From a bacterium (GTDB taxonomy: Bacteria > Actinomycetota > Acidimicrobiia > Spongiisociales > ZC4RG35): a stretch of DNA of 64,000 nt. How positions within the stretch are numbered: position 1 is the first letter of the stretch; each line of letters opens with the position of its first letter. The position numbers and the translations under genes are program-made. Below are positions 38,961 through 49,810 of the stretch, in pieces. The stretch spans positions 46,520 through 110,519 of the forward strand of contig JAHEJW010000006.1 of assembly GCA_024638655.1 (NCBI GenBank). Reading direction: 5' to 3'. The notes beneath the pieces are model-generated. The model was not told the origin of the DNA. It saw only the letters and a list, made by a program, of their open reading frames with translations, and made no database searches.

Positions 38961-39494
38961 TTGTCCCGGCCTGTTGGCTCAGATGTGCCCAGACAGGTTC
39001 GATCCGTCCTACCGAGAGCCCCGGTGATCATTGCAGCGCTTGCGATTGTCCTCAGTGCGTGTGGCGCCGATGGGGATACGGGATCGAACCTGCGCGAAGA
39101 CCTGCCCCCCATCACGGCCGAGGAGTTCGAGGCCCATATCGAGACGGTCAACCGACCCGTGGTCGTCAATGTGTGGGCTTCGTGGTGCCTGCCCTGTCGA
39201 TCGGAGGCGCCCCTGCTCAATGAGGCTTTCGCCGCGTATGGCGATCGTGTCGAATTCATCGGCATCGACGTTCAGGACAACCAAGCAGGCGCAAAACTCT
39301 TCCTCGAGGAGTTTGGTCTCGACTTCGACCACTTCTTCGACCGCGGCCGAGAGATTCCCAACGCCTATGGAGGGATCGGAACGCCAATTACCTTCTTCTT
39401 CGCACCCGGTGGCCAACTGGTCAACACGCACAACGGTGTGGTCGACGAGAGGACGCTGGCATTGAACATCGACGAATTGCTCGCTCGAGGGTGA
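38961..39494 (+). CDS. TlpA/ResA-like thioredoxin lipoprotein
   Basis: Lipobox LSAC; NVWASWCLPCRSEAPLLNEA; cis-Pro GIGTPITFFFAPGG. Confidence 0.9.
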   Translation: MSRPVGSDVPRQVRSVLPRAPVIIAALAIVLSACGADGDTGSNLREDLPPITAEEFEAHIETVNRPVVVNVWASWCLPCRSEAPLLNEAFAAYGDRVEFIGIDVQDNQAGAKLFLEEFGLDFDHFFDRGREIPNAYGGIGTPITFFFAPGGQLVNTHNGVVDERTLALNIDELLARG

Positions 39495-39538
39495 CAGGGC
39501 GAAGACCTGCCCGGAGCAAAGCTGAGATGAGGGTCTGA

Positions 39539-40216
39539 TTGGAATTCACCCTGCTTTGGGCAGCAGTGACGGGCGCAGCTGCGCTTTGGGTAGGCACCAA
39601 GATCTGGGACACGGACGCCCCGGACGACTACTTCGACCGGCTCTTGGCGGGTGCCCTCGTCGGTCTGGTTGTCGGCCGTCTCGCAGCGATGCTGGCGCAG
39701 GGGGTGAACCCAGTCACCAATCCGCTGGAGTTCATCGTCATTCGGGGAGGGGTATCGACGCCGGCTGCAGCAGCGGGGAGCGTCGGATGGCTCCTCTGGA
39801 GCTCGCGACACGACATCGCGAAGCTCGATGCCCTTGCGTCTGCCGCCCTTCTCGGCCTGGCCGGCTGGCATGCCGGTTGTCTCTGGCGGGGAGCTTGTCT
39901 GGGAACGGCCTCCGACCTTCCCTGGGCTTGGAGCAGTCCAACGAGTGATGTCACCCGGCATCCCGTGGAGTTGTACGCAGCTCTCCTCCTCGTAGTTGCA
40001 GCAATCACCGTGGGAGGGCTGGGACGGCGAGTGCTACTCAAATCCGGAGCGGCTCTCGCTCTCGCAGGTCTGGCTCGTTTGGCCACCGAGCCCATGCGAC
40101 CGAGTCTCACCGGCGGCCCGGTCGGCTGGTATGTCCTTGCGATCGTCGTCGGGCTCGGTGTTGTCATTTGGGGGGGTCACATTGGCCGATGGGTCGAGAA
40201 GCGGGCGCCAACTTGA
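39539..40216 (+). CDS. Lgt-like (prolipoprotein diacylglyceryl transferase family) membrane protein
   Basis: GWHAGCLWRGACLGT, RHPVELYAALLLV, RLATEPMRPS resemble Lgt signatures. TTG start. Confidence 0.7.
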   Translation: MEFTLLWAAVTGAAALWVGTKIWDTDAPDDYFDRLLAGALVGLVVGRLAAMLAQGVNPVTNPLEFIVIRGGVSTPAAAAGSVGWLLWSSRHDIAKLDALASAALLGLAGWHAGCLWRGACLGTASDLPWAWSSPTSDVTRHPVELYAALLLVVAAITVGGLGRRVLLKSGAALALAGLARLATEPMRPSLTGGPVGWYVLAIVVGLGVVIWGGHIGRWVEKRAPT

Positions 40217-40247
40217 GTGTCGGTCGACCGCACATGAGACTCACATC

Positions 40248-40892
40248 GTGCCTCGTATCGCCTTTCTCGCTCAGGCCCGGGTCTCTTTGGGTGACCAGAC
40301 GGTCCTCCAGGACATTGACTTCACTCTGGAGAGAGGTCATATCGCCGGGGTCACCGGCCCGAACGGATCGGGCAAGACGACTTTGCTCCGAACACTCGCA
40401 ACCCTCGTACGTGTCGACCAGGGACGAGGCGAGATCCTCGGGAGCGACATCAAGGGCGACGACATAGTTGCCGTCAGGCCATCAATCGGGCTGATAGGTC
40501 ACAATCCGACCACAATCCCGCACTTGACTCTGCGGGAGAACCTCGATCACGTGGCGAAGCTCAGATCTCTCGAGCCATCCAGGGTGGATCGTGTGCTCGA
40601 GGTCGTTGGGCTTGGCGAGGTATCCGCGAGGACGGCCAAAGACAGCTCCTATGGGATGCAGCGCAGGCTCGAGGTTGCTCGCCTGTTGTTGACCAAACCC
40701 CGGCTGCTCCTGCTCGACGAATCGTTGTCGGGCCTCGACGTCGCAGCCTCCGAGTTGATCTCGGCACTCATAGAGCGCACCGTCTCCAATGATGGAGGTG
40801 TGGTCATGGTGTCCCACGACACCGATCTCCTGAAGCGCGTCTGTCATAGCCTGTTTCATCTCGATCGGGGTCGGCTGGAGGATGCGAAATGA
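40248..40892 (+). CDS. ccmA: Heme exporter ATPase CcmA
   Basis: VTGPNGSGKTTLLRTLATL, SYGMQRRLEVARLLLTKPRLLLLDESLSGLD. GTG 40248; the ORF-track start (39996) is over-extended. Confidence 0.85.
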   Translation: MPRIAFLAQARVSLGDQTVLQDIDFTLERGHIAGVTGPNGSGKTTLLRTLATLVRVDQGRGEILGSDIKGDDIVAVRPSIGLIGHNPTTIPHLTLRENLDHVAKLRSLEPSRVDRVLEVVGLGEVSARTAKDSSYGMQRRLEVARLLLTKPRLLLLDESLSGLDVAASELISALIERTVSNDGGVVMVSHDTDLLKRVCHSLFHLDRGRLEDAK

Positions 40893-41563
40893 GCTTCTGG
40901 TCGCAGGCTCTCGAGATTGCAAGGGTCGACCTCCGGTTGGAGAGACGTATCGGTGACTCCCTTCGAATCGTCCTGCCTTTTGCAGTCGTGTCCCTACTGA
41001 TCGTTCCCTTGGCACTCGGCGTGCGTCTGAGCCTTGCTCCACAAATCGGATTCGCAGTCTTCTGGGCGCTGGGGATTCTCTTCGGGATGCAGATCGCGCT
41101 ACGCCACTCCGCATCCGACAGTCGAGTGCGACGCGATCTCTACACGCTGCTTGGCGTCGACCCAGCAGCCCGCTTCGTCGGACGCACGATCTCCGGTGCC
41201 TTGCTCACGTTCGCCTTCCTGCTGGCACTATTCGCCACCATGCTCGTCATCTACGGACCGGATCTACCTCCACGAGGGATAGTCGTAGGACCCCTGACGT
41301 CGGCTCTTCTCGCAATCGGCTTGACTGAGTTGGGAACCCTTGCCGGCGAAGTGACATCCGATCTGCGAAATCGGAGCACTCTTGCCTCTTTGATAGTCGC
41401 ACCATTGGCGATACCTCTGGTCATTGGAGCTTCCCAATCCATAGAGGCACTAGCCCGGGACACCAGTATCCTTCCATGGGTGCTGCTGATTCTCGCTACC
41501 GACCTGGCCCTGGCCGTCGCCGGTGTCGGGTTGGCCCGGCCGTTGGAGGACGCGACGCGATGA
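40889..41563 (+). CDS. ccmB: Heme exporter permease CcmB
   Basis: Multi-TM, between ccmA and ccmC with ATGA overlaps; LRHSASDSRVRRDLYTLLGVDPAARFVGRTISG. Confidence 0.82.
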   Translation: MSFWSQALEIARVDLRLERRIGDSLRIVLPFAVVSLLIVPLALGVRLSLAPQIGFAVFWALGILFGMQIALRHSASDSRVRRDLYTLLGVDPAARFVGRTISGALLTFAFLLALFATMLVIYGPDLPPRGIVVGPLTSALLAIGLTELGTLAGEVTSDLRNRSTLASLIVAPLAIPLVIGASQSIEALARDTSILPWVLLILATDLALAVAGVGLARPLEDATR

Positions 41564-42267
41564 CCAGAGTGAGAGTTTGGTTCGGTGTGGCTGCGGTGAG
41601 TGTCGGAGTCGGTCTCTGGTATGCCTTGACAGCACCGCCGGACGCACTCCAAGGAGCGTATAGCCGGCTCATCAACATCCACGTCCCATCCCTTTGGCTC
41701 GCCTTTCTCGCCTTTGGTGTGACTGCGCTCGGCTCCGTGATGTGGTTGGTCAAGAAGACCGACTTCTGGGATCGTCTTGCCGCCTCGTCAGTCGAGGTGG
41801 GAGTCGTATTCACGGGAATTGGTCTCTTCACCGGGATGGTGTGGGGTAAGGCCGTCTGGGGCACAGCCTGGGACTGGAACGACCCCCGTCTTGCCACGAC
41901 AGGGATGATGTTCTTCGTGTACGTCGGATACCTCGCACTCCGCTCTGCAATCGACGATCCTCGGGTTCGAGCTCGGAGGTCAGCCATTCTCGGCGCGTTG
42001 GCCGTAGTCCAGGTGCCACTCGTCTATTTCTCAGTCAATCTCTTCAGAACACTGCACCAGACTCAGTCGATCCGGCCGGACGGCTCGACCCTGCCTCCGG
42101 AGATGCTCAGGGCGATGCTGGTGAATGTGATCGCATTCACCGTTCTCTATATCGCGTTGATGTCGGCAAGGATGTTCGTGGCGCGTAGCCAGGCCGAGAT
42201 GGGCGCTCCGGACGCAGCAGGGGCGGCCGTCCGACCGCCCCGGATCTCGGAGGTGAAAGATGTCTGA
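41560..42267 (+). CDS. ccmC: Heme-handling protein CcmC
   Basis: NIHVPSLWLAFLAFG, GMVWGKAVWGTAWDWNDPRLATT (WWD motif), HQTQSI. Confidence 0.9.
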   Translation: MTRVRVWFGVAAVSVGVGLWYALTAPPDALQGAYSRLINIHVPSLWLAFLAFGVTALGSVMWLVKKTDFWDRLAASSVEVGVVFTGIGLFTGMVWGKAVWGTAWDWNDPRLATTGMMFFVYVGYLALRSAIDDPRVRARRSAILGALAVVQVPLVYFSVNLFRTLHQTQSIRPDGSTLPPEMLRAMLVNVIAFTVLYIALMSARMFVARSQAEMGAPDAAGAAVRPPRISEVKDV

Positions 42268-42373
42268 AACAGTGGTCGTGGCAGTGACGTTCTCGGTCTC
42301 ATATCTGGCCATCATCGCCTATTCGGTGTATCTGCATCTCCGAAGCCGGGACACCGGAACCAACGGGCCCTGA
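42260..42373 (+). CDS. CcmD-like small membrane protein (37 aa)
   Basis: MSETVVVAVTFSVSYLAIIAYSVYLHLRSRDTGTNGP: single TM plus basic tail, located between ccmC and ccmE. Below the ORF-track length cutoff. Confidence 0.75.
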   Translation: MSETVVVAVTFSVSYLAIIAYSVYLHLRSRDTGTNGP

Positions 42374-42781
42374 ATGGCACATCGTCGGTTCGTCCTCTTC
42401 GGCCTCGGAGGGGTGCTCGCCCTGGTCCTGGCGGTCACATTCTTCGGCCTCAGTGAGAATCTCACCTACTACTTGTATCCCAACGAGGCCGTAGAACAGA
42501 GGCAGGACTTCCCGGACGGAGAGCGATTTCGACTCGCCGGATTGGTCGTCGCTGGCTCGATCAACGAAGACGGCGGAGTCATACGATTCGAGGTGACAGA
42601 CGGAGCCGAGACCATCCCGGTCGAGCTGTCCTCGACTCCCCCACCACTGTTCGGAGACGAGGTGCCGGTCCTGCTCGAGGGCTCCTGGCATGGCGCCACG
42701 TTTGCCTCTGACAGCGCCCTGATCAGACACGACGAGAACTACGAGGTCCCCGAGGAGGGCGGGGGCTACCCGGCCGGTTGA
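42374..42781 (+). CDS. ccmE: Heme chaperone CcmE
   Basis: FRLAGLVVAGSI...FEVTDGAETIPVELSSTPPPLFGDEVPVLLEG...RHDENYEVPEE (HxxxY heme-binding motif). Confidence 0.9.
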   Translation: MAHRRFVLFGLGGVLALVLAVTFFGLSENLTYYLYPNEAVEQRQDFPDGERFRLAGLVVAGSINEDGGVIRFEVTDGAETIPVELSSTPPPLFGDEVPVLLEGSWHGATFASDSALIRHDENYEVPEEGGGYPAG

Positions 42782-44808
42782 TGATCTCCCTCCTTGGCTC
42801 TCTAGGGCTGGTCGCTTCGCTCGCGGGCGCCCTCGTGCTCACAGTCAGGGGGATAAGGGTGAGCCGTCGCGGCCCGGGCCCCGACCTCGTCGGCCCGGCA
42901 CGGATTCTCATTGTCGGCTCGGTCGTCGCGATGGGCGCCATGCAACTGGCCTTGGTCACAGACGACTTCTCCCTCTCCTATGTCGCCAACCATCACTCGA
43001 CCTCCACTCCGTTTCCCTTCGACGTCGCCACAGCGTGGGCAGCCTTGGAGGGGTCGATATTGCTTTGGGGTCTCGTATTGGCGGGGTTCACATGGGCGGC
43101 GGTGAGCCGATACCGCAGAGCTCCGGATCAGCTCGCAGGTGGCGCCATGGCGGTCATGGGTGGTGTGGGGATCTTCTTCTACGGCTTGATGCTCACGGTC
43201 GCCAACCCCTTCGAAGTATGCATCGAAGCCGCTCGAATTGGCTGTCTCTCGTCGTCACCCTGGCCACTCGCCTCCGTTCAGGCACCACTGGAAGGGCCAG
43301 GCCCAAACCCACTGCTTCAGAACCATCTGTTGATGGCGATCCACCCCCCGATGCTGTATCTCGGCTACGTCGGTCTCACTGTTCCGTTTGCCTATGCCGT
43401 GTCTGCTTTGGCACTTGGGCGCGGTGGCGCCGAGTGGCTGCGACGAAGCCATCGCGCAACACTGGTGGCCTGGTCCTTCCTGACGATCGGCATCGTCCTG
43501 GGTGGCTGGTGGGCGTACGAAGTCCTCTCCTGGGGTGGCTACTGGGCTTGGGATCCGGTCGAGAACGCTTCCCTCATGCCCTGGCTGGTAGCCACAGCAT
43601 TCCTTCACTCGGCTCTCGTCCAGCGACGCCGTGGCATGCTCCAGGCCTGGAACTTCGTTTTGGTCATCAGCGCCTTCGCCCTGACCATCCTCGGCACCTT
43701 TTTGACCCGGTCAGGGACGATCAACTCCGTTCACTCCTTCACCCAGTCGGCGATTGGTCCGGCACTCCTGGGGTTTCTGGTTCTGGTTTTGGTCGGATCC
43801 TTCACTCTCTTCTCCACCAGGGCACATCTGGTCTCCACATCTCCTCGTCTGGAGTCATTCGTCTCCCGCGAGGGATCGTTCCTCATCAACAACCTGCTGC
43901 TCAGTGTGTATGCGTTCGTTGTGTTGATCGGAACGACCTATCCGCTGATCCTCGAGGCATTCACCGGTACCCAGGTAGGCGTAGGAGAGCCCTTCTACAA
44001 CCGTCTCGCGGTGCCACTCTCTTACGGCTTGCTGCTGGTCATGGGTATTGGACCGGTGACTCCGTGGCGGCGGGCCAGCGGAGAGACCATCTGGAGAAGA
44101 ACCAGGGGCCCTGGTGTGATCGCATTGGGCGCCGGTCTCATGACCGGCTCAACGGTGACGAGGAACGGCTGGGTGATCCTGGCCGTGACCCTGGGCGTCT
44201 TCGTGGTGTCGTCGTCGTTGGGCCTCCTTCTCGAGCAGACGAGGCGTCGGCGAGAGAGAACCGGTGAGTCGAGGATTTCGGCCTTGCGCGATGTCGTTGT
44301 CGGTGGTGACACGGCGTTCTGGGCCGGACAACTGAGTCATGCGGGCGTCGTGCTCGTCGCCGTGGGAATTGCCTTCGCTGCGAATCTCGGAATGCACGCA
44401 GAGATACAGCTGTCGCCTGGAGAAACAACCGAGTTCGAGGGCTACAGGGTCACATACGAGTCCCCGTTCCGCCGTACTGAGCCGGGCAAGGTGACTCAAG
44501 GGGCTCGCATCACGGTCTTCGAGAACGACTCGCTTCTTGCCGTCATGGAACCCGCCGCCAACTACTTCGGCGGCGATACCACAGGCGTTAGCACACCAGA
44601 CGTGTTGACCCGACCCGGTGGCGATCTGTATGTGACCCTGCTGAAGCTCGCCCCCGACTCGGCGACGTTGACTCTCGACACTTCTCCCCTCATCTGGCTC
44701 ATCTGGCTGGGGGGTCTGATCACGGCCGGCGGAGGCGCCTGGTCGATCTCGGCTCGGCGAGCCACCGAGCCGATTCGTGAGGCTTCGCCCGACCTGGCAC
44801 ATGTCTGA
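42781..44808 (+). CDS. ccmF: Heme lyase CcmF
   Basis: GPNPLLQNHLLMAIHPPMLYLGYVG, GWWAYEVLSWGGYWAWDPVENASLMPWLVATAFLHS. Confidence 0.95.
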   Translation: MISLLGSLGLVASLAGALVLTVRGIRVSRRGPGPDLVGPARILIVGSVVAMGAMQLALVTDDFSLSYVANHHSTSTPFPFDVATAWAALEGSILLWGLVLAGFTWAAVSRYRRAPDQLAGGAMAVMGGVGIFFYGLMLTVANPFEVCIEAARIGCLSSSPWPLASVQAPLEGPGPNPLLQNHLLMAIHPPMLYLGYVGLTVPFAYAVSALALGRGGAEWLRRSHRATLVAWSFLTIGIVLGGWWAYEVLSWGGYWAWDPVENASLMPWLVATAFLHSALVQRRRGMLQAWNFVLVISAFALTILGTFLTRSGTINSVHSFTQSAIGPALLGFLVLVLVGSFTLFSTRAHLVSTSPRLESFVSREGSFLINNLLLSVYAFVVLIGTTYPLILEAFTGTQVGVGEPFYNRLAVPLSYGLLLVMGIGPVTPWRRASGETIWRRTRGPGVIALGAGLMTGSTVTRNGWVILAVTLGVFVVSSSLGLLLEQTRRRRERTGESRISALRDVVVGGDTAFWAGQLSHAGVVLVAVGIAFAANLGMHAEIQLSPGETTEFEGYRVTYESPFRRTEPGKVTQGARITVFENDSLLAVMEPAANYFGGDTTGVSTPDVLTRPGGDLYVTLLKLAPDSATLTLDTSPLIWLIWLGGLITAGGGAWSISARRATEPIREASPDLAHV

Positions 44809-45811
44809 GAGGCTCAGGAGCCGTATCTACGCGCTGGCGATCTCGGTCATGGCTTCTTTGGTTCTAGTGCTCATCTTGACGAGCCCTGGTGAGGCGGATC
44901 GAGTTCAAGAGCTCGGCAACAGCATCAAATGCCCGGTTTGTCAGGGTGAGTCCATTGCCGACTCCCCCTCGGCGATGGCTCGAGACATGATGTCCCTTGT
45001 CGCCGAGCGAGTCGGTGAGGGTCGGAGTGATGGCGAGATCATCGACGAATTGCTCGGCTCGTACACCGGGGCCGTCCTGCTGGACCCACCAGCGAGCGGG
45101 TCGACCCTCTTCCTCTGGGTAGCTCCTGCATTGGCGTTTCTCATCGGCGCAGGCGTGATCATTTGGTGGGAGCGACACCCTGGAGAAGCGCTAACCAAAC
45201 CGGACCAACCTGCGACTCGCAGCAGACAACGCATGCTCATCGGAGGGTTGGTGCTCGCCGGCGCGTTTGGAGTGATCGTCGTCGTTGCCGGCTTCTTCAT
45301 TCAAGGGGAACGTGCTGATCCTGGGTCCGGCGTTGCAGAACTCGCCGGCCAAGACCTCGAGGATGTGTCAAACGAGACGATGGAGGCGGTGATCGCCGCC
45401 AACCAGGACAATCCCCAGATCAGTGGCATGCGGCTGGCCCTGGCCGAGCGGTACTTCGCAGCTGGTGACTACCGGTCGGCCTTCCCCCACTATCTCGCCG
45501 TCGCCGAGGCGGAGTCCTCGTCTCGATCTCAAGTGGTGGAAGCGTTGATTCGGCTCGGCTGGATGGCATGGGATGGCAACGGCGAAATCGAGCCGGCCCT
45601 GGGCATGTTCGACCAGGCACTTGCGCTCGAACCTGGGTCGTCAACCGCCCTCTATCTGAAGGGGAAGGTCGTCTGGTGTGGAGTCGGTGACTTTTTGGAG
45701 GCGGAGAGGCTCTTCACGGCGGTGATCGCCAACGCTGACCTGCCCTCCGAATCTATCGAGCTGGTCGAGTCGGACCTTCGAGCTGTCAATCGCGGAGAGG
45801 TCTGCCCATGA
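44801..45811 (+). CDS. CcmH/CcmI fusion (apocytochrome c thioreductase plus TPR)
   Basis: IKCPVCQGESIADSPSAMARDMMSLV (CcmH) followed by TM and a TPR-like C-terminus (CcmI/NrfG-like). Confidence 0.88.
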   Translation: MSERLRSRIYALAISVMASLVLVLILTSPGEADRVQELGNSIKCPVCQGESIADSPSAMARDMMSLVAERVGEGRSDGEIIDELLGSYTGAVLLDPPASGSTLFLWVAPALAFLIGAGVIIWWERHPGEALTKPDQPATRSRQRMLIGGLVLAGAFGVIVVVAGFFIQGERADPGSGVAELAGQDLEDVSNETMEAVIAANQDNPQISGMRLALAERYFAAGDYRSAFPHYLAVAEAESSSRSQVVEALIRLGWMAWDGNGEIEPALGMFDQALALEPGSSTALYLKGKVVWCGVGDFLEAERLFTAVIANADLPSESIELVESDLRAVNRGEVCP

Positions 45812-46401
45812 GCGGCCGGTGGCTGCGTTTCACTGGAATCGCGATCGCCGCCGCCACCATCGTCTTCGCCGTCGTCCTCGCCTCACGCTTCGGAAGCGAC
45901 CCGGGGCTGGTCGAGTCACCATTGATCGGCCGAACCGCACCCGACTTCATGTTGTCTACCCTCGACGGCTCCGATTCTTTGGCCCTATCGGAGCTCCGCG
46001 GAGGTGTGGTGGTCATCAACTTCTTCGCTTCATGGTGTCTCGAGTGCCGCAAAGAGCACGACGACTTGGTGGCAACTGCGGACGCCTTCTCCGATCGAGG
46101 CGTGCACTTCGTTCAGATCGGGTACCAGGAGGATTCCGCCAACTCTCTGGAGTATCTCGACGAAGCCGGCGCCTCGGCGTTCACGACTTACCTGGCCGAC
46201 CCCGGCAGCCGCACCGCCATCGCCTACGGGGTCTTCGGGATCCCCGAGACGTTCTTCGTCGATGGGAATGGAATGGTGGTCGGCAAGATCATCGGCGAGG
46301 CCGACGCGTTCACTCTGGGAGCCACACTGGACACCATCCTTGGCGGAGGCACCCCAGGTCAGACGATCACGGGTGATACCCAACAGCAGCCCGGCGGCTG
46401 A
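45808..46401 (+). CDS. CcmG/DsbE/ResA-like thioredoxin
   Basis: GRTAPDFMLSTLDGSDSLALSELRGGVVVINFFASWCLECRKEHDDL; GIPETFFVDGNG. Confidence 0.9.
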   Translation: MSGRWLRFTGIAIAAATIVFAVVLASRFGSDPGLVESPLIGRTAPDFMLSTLDGSDSLALSELRGGVVVINFFASWCLECRKEHDDLVATADAFSDRGVHFVQIGYQEDSANSLEYLDEAGASAFTTYLADPGSRTAIAYGVFGIPETFFVDGNGMVVGKIIGEADAFTLGATLDTILGGGTPGQTITGDTQQQPGG

Positions 46402-47799
46402 TCACCCTGGAGCCAGCAGCTCCACGGTCACCTCATCGAAACTGACGGCATCGAGCGCGGCAGATCCGGTCTCGAGGAGAAAAACATCGAAGAAGCCGAG
46501 CAAGTAGTTGTCCAGAATCGGCAGAATCCGACCCGGAGGGATGGGGCCTTTCAACCCTATGCGCCCCCCCAAAGGCGACAAGAGGGGAACAACGACGAAG
46601 TCGTAGTGCCCTGCGCCTTCGATGCCGATCCAATAGGCGACGTTTTCGCTCCGTGCGGCGATCCCTCTGAGCACCGCATCGTTCTCGGTGCCCCTCCAGC
46701 CGTCAGACCTCAGATACATGGCCGGCTTGTCAGCGCTGAGCTTGAGCACTTCATCGGGGAGGTACTCAACCCAGGGGTCCATGCCCAGAACTGCGTCGCA
46801 TCGCTCATCCTCGAGACACACCTTGACGGCGGCACCGCCGCCCGTCGAGTGGCCATAGACGCCTATCCGGGACAGATCCGCGTTGTCGGTGATGTAGGCG
46901 AACCGCCCGTTCGGTCCTTCGTCGAGCTCGTTGAGGATTGTCACGAGATCGCCGGCAAATGTTGCCACCAGGTTCTGTACACCCTCCTCGTACTGAGCCG
47001 GCGTGACCGTCTGCTGGTCGGGCAGGGCGGCGGGATCGAACTCGACGACGTCACCGTCTTCGAGCCTCGTGGCTACCGCACCGTAGGTGTGGTCAGGAGC
47101 GACGACTATGTACCCGTTCGACACGAGAGCCTCTATTTGGTTGATCGCTATCGACCGGAACCCGGTCCAGCCGTGGCTGTAGATGATCACCGGAAAGTTG
47201 CCCTCGGCAGGTGGAATCGACTCTCGTGCATGTGACCGCGTGTATCTCGTGTGATCGAGGAACCATGAGGGGAAACCAAGACGCTTCGCCGAGGCAGGAG
47301 CCACGATTTCCCATTCCTCCGCCCAGGCCTGGAAACCCCCAGATCCGTCTGGCCGTCCCGGGTACCACACCTGAGCCACGATCACCCGGGGGGAACCGGC
47401 CCTCGACCCATACATCTCCGGCCTCTCGGAATCGGTGATCTGGACCGTCACCGTCCCAATCGGCTCCGGCCCGGTCGGTGTGGGCAGCTCGGGCACAGGC
47501 AACAACAGAGCTGGTGCTGCAGCAAGGACTATCCCTGCCACACCGAAGGTGCCCCGGGCCACCCTGTTGGGCCATTTCAGCGTTCGCTCGATGAAGATGA
47601 CATCACCAATCGCCAGCCCCAGCGATACCAGATACAGCGGCAGCATCTGCCACCTGAACCCTTCGAACCTGAGGTGCACGACGACGGCGCCCAGAAGCGA
47701 CAACGAGATGATCCCCCGACGCGGCCGCACGCCAAAGACTGCGGGCCATGCGACAGCGACCAGGGTGACGAAGGCGAGCAGGAGCTCGAAACGTCTCAA
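46402..47799 (-). CDS. Alpha/beta hydrolase (PAF-acetylhydrolase-like) with N-terminal TM region
   Basis: FPVIIYSHGWTGFRSIAINQIEALVSNGYIVVAPDHTYG, GVYGHSTGGGAAVKVC. Confidence 0.88.
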   Translation of the reverse strand: MRRFELLLAFVTLVAVAWPAVFGVRPRRGIISLSLLGAVVVHLRFEGFRWQMLPLYLVSLGLAIGDVIFIERTLKWPNRVARGTFGVAGIVLAAAPALLLPVPELPTPTGPEPIGTVTVQITDSERPEMYGSRAGSPRVIVAQVWYPGRPDGSGGFQAWAEEWEIVAPASAKRLGFPSWFLDHTRYTRSHARESIPPAEGNFPVIIYSHGWTGFRSIAINQIEALVSNGYIVVAPDHTYGAVATRLEDGDVVEFDPAALPDQQTVTPAQYEEGVQNLVATFAGDLVTILNELDEGPNGRFAYITDNADLSRIGVYGHSTGGGAAVKVCLEDERCDAVLGMDPWVEYLPDEVLKLSADKPAMYLRSDGWRGTENDAVLRGIAARSENVAYWIGIEGAGHYDFVVVPLLSPLGGRIGLKGPIPPGRILPILDNYLLGFFDVFLLETGSAALDAVSFDEVTVELLAPG

Positions 47800-47818: not shown

Positions 47819-48451
47819 CTATCCGGAGGCAGCGATCAGATCGTCGAGGTGTGCCCGGATCTCGTCTTCTGGCAGCAATCCTGCCCAAGCCTGCGCAACC
47901 CGCTTGCCAGCTGTGATCAAAACTGTGACTGGCTGATAAGGGACACCGTATTTCTCGAAAATGTCCTCGTCTTCGTCGAGACCCCAGAGAACTTTGCCTG
48001 AGACGAATGTGGCGACTGCCAGCGATTCAGTCCGGGCGAAGTCTGACTTCCAGGCAGGGGCCACGAAGTCGACCGCGTCGCCGTAGTCGGCAGCTATGGC
48101 ATCGACGACGGGCAACTCCCGCCTGCAGGTTGGTCACCACTCGGCCCAGAAGACCAGGTAGACAGGGTTATCGGTGTCAGTTAGTCGATACTCCCCACCG
48201 GTTCCCAACTCCAGTGTGAAATCGGGAGCCAGGGGAAGATCAGAAGCAGTAGTAGTCGTCTCGTCCGACGACCCTGAGGTGGTTCCCGTCTCGGATGTCC
48301 CAGGGCTTCCTGCGGTGGTGGTATCCGAGGCATCGGCGGTGGTCGTGGTGGGATCACTGCCAGATGAGCTGGTCGGGCTCTCTAGGGCGGACCCACCGCA
48401 TGCGGCAACGAGCATGAGCAATGTCAACAAGAAGCGGGACACATCGACCAA
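47819..48451 (-). CDS. Candidate selenoprotein: thioredoxin/TlpA-like lipoprotein with in-frame TGA (Sec106) in a UPTC active site
   Basis: Two same-frame ORF-track entries (48134..48451 and 47819..48115) join through TGA 48134-48136: ...YLVFWAEW-[TGA]-PTCRRELPVVDAIAADYGD...; N-terminal lipobox LVAAC; cis-Pro GVPYQPVTVLI downstream. Confidence 0.72.
48107..48133 (-). promoter_or_regulatory. Candidate bacterial SECIS hairpin: GGCGGG-AGUUG-CCCGUC
   Basis: 6-bp stem (one G-U pair), 5-nt loop with G at the second position, loop starting 17 nt after the UGA (C-C-A-A-C-C-U-G-C-A-G-G-C-G-G-G then loop). Confidence 0.55.
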
Positions 48452-48534
48452 CCTAGATGCGCCTGTGTTTAACCCGGGTAAATCGCCGGAGAGCTGACAA
48501 GGTGTCGGGCGCCGGAAGCTACAATCCGCTATTC

Positions 48535-48996
48535 GTGCCAGAGAAGACCCTCTACTTCGCCTATGCCTCGCTGTTGGACCCGGATCGGATCGCGGCCGTT
48601 GCCCCAGGTGCCGAATTCCTATTCACCGCCCACTACCCAGAGACGAAACTCGACTTCGTTCCGTCACAAGACGTGGTGGCCCTGCCCACTTTGATCAAGG
48701 AGTCCGGCCACACGGTTTGGGGCGGAGTATTCGAGATCCCGCCGGAAGATCTGGATGCCCTGATCGAGGCAGAGCGAGCCGAAGGGCGGGTGCCCGGCTT
48801 CGACCACCGGGCCGTCGACCGCGAGGGCAACAAGCACGATTGCCTAGCCTTTACTGCCCCCGGTGTGCCGAATGGCGACCATCGACCCTCCCCCGAGTAC
48901 CTCGAGGCAATGGTCAAGGGCGCCAAACACTGGAGTCTCCCCGCCGGGTGGGTGATGGGGTTGGAGGATCTGGGCGAGGACCCCTTCTTCTCCTAA
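48535..48996 (+). CDS. Gamma-glutamylcyclotransferase/AIG2-like protein
   Basis: LYFAYASLLDPDRIAAVAPGAEFLFTAHYPETKLDF...VWGGVFEIPPEDLDALIEAE. GTG start. Confidence 0.75.
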   Translation: MPEKTLYFAYASLLDPDRIAAVAPGAEFLFTAHYPETKLDFVPSQDVVALPTLIKESGHTVWGGVFEIPPEDLDALIEAERAEGRVPGFDHRAVDREGNKHDCLAFTAPGVPNGDHRPSPEYLEAMVKGAKHWSLPAGWVMGLEDLGEDPFFS

Positions 48997-49031: not shown

Positions 49032-49682
49032 CTACTCGGCATCCGAACCTGCCGGGAACAGCCGGTACAGACCCCAAGCCACCAGCGCTCCTATCAGCGG
49101 CGCATACACATAGACCAAGAGCTGGGACGAGGCACCACCTACGATGGCCGGCCCGAAGGAGCGCGCCGGGTTGACAGACGCTCCCGAGAACGGGATTCCC
49201 GATATGTGAATACCCACCAGGACAAGAGCTATGGCCAGTGGCGCGTGGTTCTCTCCTTGTCGCACCACGGCGAGAATGGTCCATACGAAGATCGCAGTCA
49301 GGGCGATTTCGACCAGGATTGCGGTGCTCAGATCGGAATAGCCGGTAGCCGTCAGCGCGACCTCATTCCGGCTCGACGCCAGCATCACGGCCAGGGACGC
49401 GACGGCCGCACCGCCGAACTGGGCGACCCAATAGCCAACCGCATCACTCAGTGTCATCCGCTTGTCGGCCAGAAATGCCAAGGTCACAGCCGGGTTGAAG
49501 TGGGCTCCCGAGATATGCCCAAAGATCCAGATCCCGGCCAGGAGTGCCAGCCCAAAGCCCAGGCCGATGCCGAGGATCTTCGCCGGCGTGTCGGCGCCCT
49601 GCATCGACAAAATGGCCAGGGATCCTCCGAACACCAGGATGAAAGTCCCGATGAATTCGGCCAGATACTTGTTGATCACCAT
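49032..49682 (-). CDS. Aquaporin (MIP family)
   Basis: GAHFNPAVTLAF and GASVNPARSFGPA (two NPA motifs), six TM. Confidence 0.94.
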   Translation of the reverse strand: MVINKYLAEFIGTFILVFGGSLAILSMQGADTPAKILGIGLGFGLALLAGIWIFGHISGAHFNPAVTLAFLADKRMTLSDAVGYWVAQFGGAAVASLAVMLASSRNEVALTATGYSDLSTAILVEIALTAIFVWTILAVVRQGENHAPLAIALVLVGIHISGIPFSGASVNPARSFGPAIVGGASSQLLVYVYAPLIGALVAWGLYRLFPAGSDAE

Positions 49683-49810
49683 CAAGCTCACCTCTCTGCT
49701 GAAATGCGCGTCCCAGGACCGGAGCCCGGTCGCCAAGTTCTCCTGGGGAGAGGCTATTTCGCCCGCACGCGAACTGTCGGATTTCAGAGCCAGGCGGGAA
49801 CCTGGGATAC

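What the first reader, a model, noticed from the sequence alone, without database searches (positions are those of the whole stretch)
47819..48451. Candidate selenoprotein: thioredoxin/TlpA-like lipoprotein with in-frame TGA at the active-site Cys (W-U-P-T-C)
Seen directly: the minus strand reads ...CTG GTC TTC TGG GCC GAG TGG TGA CCA ACC TGC AGG CGG GAG TTG CCC GTC..., i.e. LVFWAEW-*-PTCRRELPVVDA. Joining the two same-frame ORFs through TGA 48134-48136 gives a 210-aa protein with a lipobox (LVAAC), a Ser/Thr linker, a TlpA-like core and a downstream cis-Pro (VPYQPVTVLI). The TGA replaces exactly the first Cys of the WCxxC motif, and coding quality stays high on both sides, unlike a decaying pseudogene. 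Immediately 3' is a hairpin GGCGGG-AGUUG-CCCGUC whose loop starts 17 nt after the UGA and has G at loop position 2, which fits the general bacterial SECIS layout. Inference: Sec insertion. The two other TlpA-like proteins here (38961..39494 WCLPC; 45808..46401 WCLEC) keep Cys.
Basis: partly seen in the sequence, partly recalled or inferred. Interest (0 to 1): 0.88.

Follow-up and report, generated by a model that had tools for sequence, protein, structure and literature searches.

The report
Order-wide selenocysteine thioredoxin-like lipoprotein family
A gene that seems broken by a stop signal instead encodes an outward-facing redox protein with the rare amino acid selenocysteine in its active site; at least 94 related genomes of mostly uncultured actinobacteria keep the same signal, often near genes for cytochrome c assembly.

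Summary
The window's genome has selA-selB, selD (itself with an in-frame TGA) and tRNA-Sec with a TCA anticodon. In 138 genomes of the same order, 94 carry an orthologue with an in-frame TGA, at exactly this active-site column in all copies inspected. Only five have just a Cys form; four of those lack SelA and at least three also lack tRNA-Sec. In the Sec forms the 3' hairpin (CGGG-AGUUG-CCCG) has frozen synonymous sites (Leu TTG/TTA 72/81 versus 15% elsewhere, p~1e-44) and covarying pairs; the Cys forms have lost it. About half of the Sec genes also end in TGA, so TGA is not globally recoded. The protein is a predicted lipoprotein with a ResA/DsbF-like thioredoxin fold. It often lies tail-to-tail with the cytochrome c maturation operon or with a TlpA + Lgt-like pair (38 of 72 loci). 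Best reading: a selenocysteine (UxxC) extracytoplasmic thiol:disulfide reductase, probably serving cytochrome c maturation or envelope thiols (function inferred). UxxC thioredoxin-like selenoproteins are a known kind; no NCBIfam model claims this family and I found no paper on it, though older metagenome bins may include it. A distant second Sec family occurs in sister groups of the class.

The parts
47819..48442 (-). Sec-containing TlpA/ResA/DsbF-like lipoprotein CDS, 207 aa from GTG 48442 (TTG 48451 possible, 210 aa), ends TAG
48134..48136 (-). in-frame TGA = selenocysteine codon (residue 103), first position of the UxxC motif
48125..48127 (-). resolving Cys (residue 106) of UxxC
48107..48123 (-). 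SECIS-type hairpin GGCGGG-AGUUG-CCCGUC, loop 48113-48117, 16 nt after UGA
   Evidence: model constraints
48116..48118 (-). invariant Glu (Sec+6), same offset as Glu80 of ResA
   Evidence: offset to ResA from the Cys74/Cys77/Glu80 names of the structures
48398..48400 (-). lipobox Cys (LVAAC)
47930..47932 (-). cis-Pro of the Trx fold, preceded by invariant Gln (YQP)
46402..47799 (-). downstream same-strand alpha/beta hydrolase (PF03403-like), possible co-transcript
39996..46401 (+). convergent cytochrome c maturation cluster: ABC ATPase (CcmA position), CcmB, CcmC, CcmE, CcmF, CcmH, CcmG/DsbE
   Evidence: neighbourhood conservation
38961..40216 (+). Cys TlpA lipoprotein (WCLPC) followed by an Lgt-like membrane protein with a Cys pair

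Best explanation
It is a genuine selenoprotein gene. UGA 48134-48136 is decoded as selenocysteine by SelB and tRNA-Sec, directed by a hairpin whose loop starts 17 nt downstream. The product is a lipid-anchored, extracytoplasmic thioredoxin-fold protein with a WUPTC active site, nearest to ResA and to actinobacterial DsbF. Most likely mechanism: the selenolate attacks disulfides and the resolving Cys releases the substrate, so the protein acts as a fast thiol:disulfide reductase in the cell envelope, re-reduced from inside through CcdA or a similar carrier, and helps keep apocytochrome c or other envelope thiols reduced alongside CcmG and CcmH. Shown by computation: Sec coding, SECIS, fold, gene neighbourhood. 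Inferred: redox direction, partners, substrate. Confidence in Sec coding is about 0.97; in the reductase / cytochrome c role about 0.5; the figure below is for Sec coding of an envelope thiol oxidoreductase as a whole.
For: Sec machinery in the genome; TGA conserved in 94 of 138 genomes of the order and in 70 of 73 loci of another collection; Cys forms go with missing machinery; frozen codons and covarying stem, lost in Cys forms; 42 of 85 Sec genes end in TGA, so no global recoding; coding conserved on both sides with constant length; ResA best by fold, DsbF best by profile; ccm or TlpA + Lgt-like neighbours in 38 of 72 loci; CcdA in the genome.
Against: No protein or selenium data. Nearly all relatives are metagenome bins. 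One Cys-form genome (G136) keeps SelA and tRNA-Sec. About half of the loci show no Ccm or TlpA/Lgt neighbour within 4 kb. The tree-based covariation test was underpowered (3 pairs for, 0 against). Redox direction is not shown.
Confidence: 0.93

Rival explanations
1. Isolated nonsense mutation, decaying pseudogene or sequencing error at an ordinary Cys codon.
For: All sequences are draft genomes or bins; six Cys forms exist.
Against: TGA recurs at the same column in 81 of 87 distinct copies from eight families, with conserved coding on both sides and a frozen hairpin.
Confidence: 0.01
2. TGA is read as another amino acid (global recoding, or a natural suppressor inserting Trp/Cys) rather than as selenocysteine.
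For: The frame is open under any TGA = residue code.
Against: 42 of 85 Sec-form genes stop at TGA; tRNA-Sec(TCA), SelA, SelB, SelD are present; SECIS-type constraint; Cys forms track loss of the machinery.
Confidence: 0.02
3. It is a Sec protein, but works as an oxidase/isomerase of secreted proteins (DsbE/DsbF-like) or as a thiol peroxidase, not as a reductase for cytochrome c maturation.
For: Best profile match is DsbF, with the same Gln-Pro at the cis-Pro loop; the sister Sec family matches MPT53/DsbF best; Redoxin and AhpC-TSA are the best Pfam hits; many loci lack Ccm neighbours.
Against: Fold search ranks ResA first; Glu at Sec+6 as in ResA; ccm or TlpA + Lgt-like genes lie next to it in several families; UxxC with a resolving Cys suits thiol exchange.
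Confidence: 0.4

Closest known systems
UxxC thioredoxin-like / redoxin selenoproteins of marine metagenomes (Trx-like 1 COG0526, Prx-like 3 PF08534, thiol-disulfide isomerase-like cd02966; PMC2398784, PMC13188914)
   Same: UxxC motif in a Trx fold, Pfam Redoxin over cut-off, bSECIS right after UGA
   Different: Those are broad bins by domain; I could not test whether sequences of this family lie in them. This family is a lipoprotein of one actinobacterial order with its own SECIS and neighbourhood
NF041057 Rcas_1661 family thioredoxin-like (seleno)lipoprotein
   Same: Sec-containing Trx-like lipoprotein
   Different: Score 24.5 against a cut-off of 190: not a member
ResA (Bacillus thiol-disulfide oxidoreductase of cytochrome c biogenesis)
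   Same: Best fold match, TM 0.90 on the target, rmsd 1.5; Glu at +6; anchored outside the membrane; ccm neighbours
   Different: Cys (CEPC) instead of Sec; 24% identity; 49 bits against the NCBIfam cut-off of 170
Mycobacterium tuberculosis DsbF and MPT53 (DsbE)
   Same: Best profile match to a solved structure; Gln-Pro at the cis-Pro loop
   Different: Cys active site; about 26% identity
NF041054 ResA-like WAxxUGC selenoprotein
   Same: ResA-like selenoprotein
   Different: UGC motif instead of UxxC; score 16 against a cut-off of 300

Membership tests
Bacterial selenoprotein | in-frame UGA at a column that is Cys in homologues | tested here: met
Bacterial selenoprotein | selA, selB, selD and tRNA-Sec in the genome | tested here: met
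Bacterial selenoprotein | bSECIS: loop 3-9 nt, stem 4-16 bp, G in first two loop positions, 16-37 nt from UGA, MFE <= -7.5 (constraints read) | tested here: met
   loop 5 nt, stem 6 bp or more, G at 2, 16 nt (the minimum), -10.4 kcal/mol
Bacterial selenoprotein | SECIS under selection at the RNA level | tested here: met
   frozen codons, covariation; independent-pairs test underpowered
Bacterial selenoprotein | selenium in the protein | not testable with these tools
   needs MS or 75Se labelling
TlpA/ResA/DsbE-like thiol oxidoreductase | thioredoxin fold with CxxC-type motif and cis-Pro | tested here: met
   (with Sec for the first Cys)
ResA (NCBIfam NF002854) | score over the curated cut-off (170) | tested here: not met
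   49 bits
ResA / cytochrome c thioreductase | needed for reduction of apocytochrome c | not testable with these tools
   only neighbourhood and fold support it
NF041057 Rcas_1661 (seleno)lipoprotein | score over the curated cut-off (190) | tested here: not met
   24.5 bits
Lipoprotein | signal peptide with lipobox Cys | tested here: met
   by inspection of LVAAC and of aligned N-termini; no dedicated predictor was run

The most novel reading that the evidence does not exclude
An entire actinobacterial order runs a selenium-dependent envelope thiol relay for cytochrome c maturation: a Sec lipoprotein, a Cys TlpA lipoprotein and an Lgt-derived membrane protein whose catalytic motif is replaced by a Cys pair, next to ccm genes. 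As far as I know that step has been described only with Cys proteins.
Probability: 0.25. Interest if true: 0.75.

Novelty: new member of a known kind. Interest (0 to 1): 0.5.

Why it matters
It is a strongly conserved selenoprotein family across a whole order of mostly uncultured actinobacteria that standard gene calling would split into two fragments. At least four changes between Sec and Cys on one tree, with loss of the SECIS hairpin in the Cys forms, make it a clean natural experiment on when Sec is kept. Its cytochrome c maturation neighbourhood gives a testable hint of selenium use in cytochrome assembly.

Tried and rejected
Pseudogene and global TGA recoding were rejected. Viral copies: none found. 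Comparing raw folding energies of Sec and Cys forms was uninformative (means -14.8 and -11.8, wide spread), so I relied on pairing and codon tests. The tree-based covariation test had too few independent pairs. ABC-transporter hits near the gene in other loci (about 30% identity) were not counted as CcmA. Literature searches for selenoproteins together with TlpA, Acidimicrobiia, UBA5794, Ilumatobacter, DsbE or cytochrome c maturation gave nothing on this family. One relevant paper (Haft and Tolstoy 2025) is not held in the library.

Full report
OBSERVATION. The minus strand at 48451-47819 is one frame interrupted only by TGA 48134-48136, which stands at the first position of a Trx CxxC motif (WAEW-U-PTC). 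Pfam sees one Redoxin / AhpC-TSA / Thioredoxin domain across the TGA. Orthologue N-termini suggest that the start is GTG 48442 rather than TTG 48451.

MACHINERY. The window is C19:46520-110519 of a 2.87 Mb, 75-contig, 93% complete assembly. It encodes SelA (378 bits) and, directly downstream, SelB (328 bits). SelD (384 bits) itself has one in-frame TGA, GSG-U-ACK. tRNA-Sec scores 72.4 bits, and ARAGORN gives anticodon TCA.

DISTRIBUTION. Searching P0001 in 138 genomes of the order gave 94 genomes whose best orthologue (87 bits or more) has an in-frame TGA. Five genomes have only a Cys form; G053 carries a Cys copy beside its Sec copy. Sequence inspection of 87 distinct copies shows TGA in 81 and TGC/TGT in 6, always in the FWAEW-[U/C]-x-x-C context. 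A scan of GTDB r220 contigs found 73 loci. One (L183, Gordonia) is another TlpA; the rest are nearly all titled Acidimicrobiia, Actinobacteria/Actinomycetota or plain 'bacterium' (three Acidobacteria), 70 with TGA and 2 with Cys. Two record titles (UBA5794, UBA4744) suggest GTDB order UBA5794 of Acidimicrobiia; that order name is from memory. Among 398 genomes sampled over the phylum, no strong match lies outside the order. A tree needs at least four changes between Sec and Cys.

CO-OCCURRENCE. SelA is in 118 of 138 genomes. Sec form with SelA 87, Sec form without 7, Cys form with 1 (G136), Cys form without 4; Fisher p=4e-4 (genomes of one genus are not independent). Of the seven Sec-form genomes without SelA, five are only 56-75% complete, and the other two (G033, G099) have tRNA-Sec over the cut-off. 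G137, G048 and G036 (Cys forms) have no tRNA-Sec. The 51.6-bit hit in Cys-form G135 is in the range of tRNA-Ser (compare L007, 55 bits, which is tRNA-Ser).

SECIS. Counting from U of UGA, the stem is 14-30, 15-29, 16-28, 17-27, 18-26, 19-25 with loop AGUUG at 20-24. Pair 14-30 reads GC 53, AT 18, CG 2, TA 1, GT 2, non-pairs 5; no shuffle of 5000 is as high (shuffles ignore relatedness). The pair changes at least 12 times on the tree; the independent-pairs test gave 3 for, 0 against, too few for significance. L027 changed Arg to Leu (CGA to CTA) together with Val GTC to GTA, which restores U-A; L104 has a rebuilt stem CAAGGG/CCCUUG. Codons under the hairpin are frozen compared with the rest of the same genes: Arg CGG 75/78 against 36%, Leu TTG/TTA 72/81 against 15%, Pro CCC 75/81 against 38%, Val GTC/GTT 66/73 against 51%. 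Cys forms mostly use AAG GAG CTC/CTG CCG and lose most pairs. The element meets the published bSECIS constraints, with spacing at the 16-nt minimum. Because 42 of 85 Sec genes end in TGA as true stop, decoding must be context dependent.

PROTEIN. AlphaFold gives a confident Trx-fold core (118 residues with pLDDT 90 or more) behind a disordered linker. Foldseek ranks ResA first (TM 0.90 on the target, rmsd 1.5); DsbF, MPT53 and CcmG follow. The profile's best sequence match is DsbF. A Glu six residues after the Sec corresponds in offset to ResA Glu80. No NCBIfam model is over its cut-off; the nearest Sec-aware models are NF041057 and NF041054.

CONTEXT. In the window the Sec gene is convergent with a ccm cluster and is followed by an alpha/beta hydrolase. 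Of 72 loci (4 kb flanks, some truncated), 23 carry CcmG/DsbE (usually with CcmH and CcmF) and 15 others carry the TlpA + Lgt-like pair that heads the same cluster in the window. CcdA exists elsewhere on the contig. This supports, but does not prove, a role in reducing apocytochrome c or other envelope thiols.

SISTER FAMILY. A distant Sec protein with FWAP-x-U-[ST]-x-C occurs in other families of the class: 17 of 19 listed matches have one TGA. In the loci inspected it has its own frozen stretch CCUC-GGUC-GAGG, loop 26 nt after UGA, and it matches MPT53 and DsbF best. In G292 a Cys paralogue stands just upstream of the Sec gene.

NOVELTY. UxxC Trx-like selenoproteins have been known since the Sargasso Sea and GOS surveys, and the 2026 review lists redoxin and TlpA-like examples (PMC2398784, PMC13188914). 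This is therefore a new, unmodelled family of a known kind. What is new here, as far as I could check, is its order-wide conservation, its SECIS evolution and its ccm linkage.

CAVEATS. All evidence is comparative. Nearly all relatives are bins. Searches used thresholds and one peptide pattern, so distant members may be missed.

Noticed in passing
window 39539-40216 (+): Lgt-family membrane protein (PF01790, 49 bits) in which the stretch corresponding to Lgt's GNxxNGE motif (recalled) carries a Cys pair (GWHAGC-x5-CLG). Most of 15 aligned orthologues keep both Cys and one (L173) lost both; it always stands beside the TlpA lipoprotein: candidate membrane thiol carrier.
   Followed up: partly
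L196-L207 (other families of the class): Second Sec TlpA/DsbF-like family, FWAP-x-U-[ST]-x-C, with its own frozen hairpin CCUC-GGUC-GAGG; some genomes have single-contig assemblies and may be cultured.
   Followed up: partly
L132, L133, L141, L142: One genus has three tandem Sec-TlpA genes, each with its own UGA and mostly its own hairpin.
   Followed up: partly
L005 (G000 C29:51742-52665): selD itself carries an in-frame TGA (GSG-U-ACK), a known Sec-type selD.
   Followed up: partly
window 48457-48996 (+) and 49032-49736 (-): An AIG2/GGACT-like gene divergent from the Sec gene and an aquaporin-family gene are conserved neighbours in 32 and 30 of 72 loci.
   Followed up: no
G105, G113, G114, G122-G124, G134 and others: Genomes of the same family with SelA but without a strong orthologue of this gene, so other selenoproteins must sustain the Sec machinery there.
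   Followed up: no
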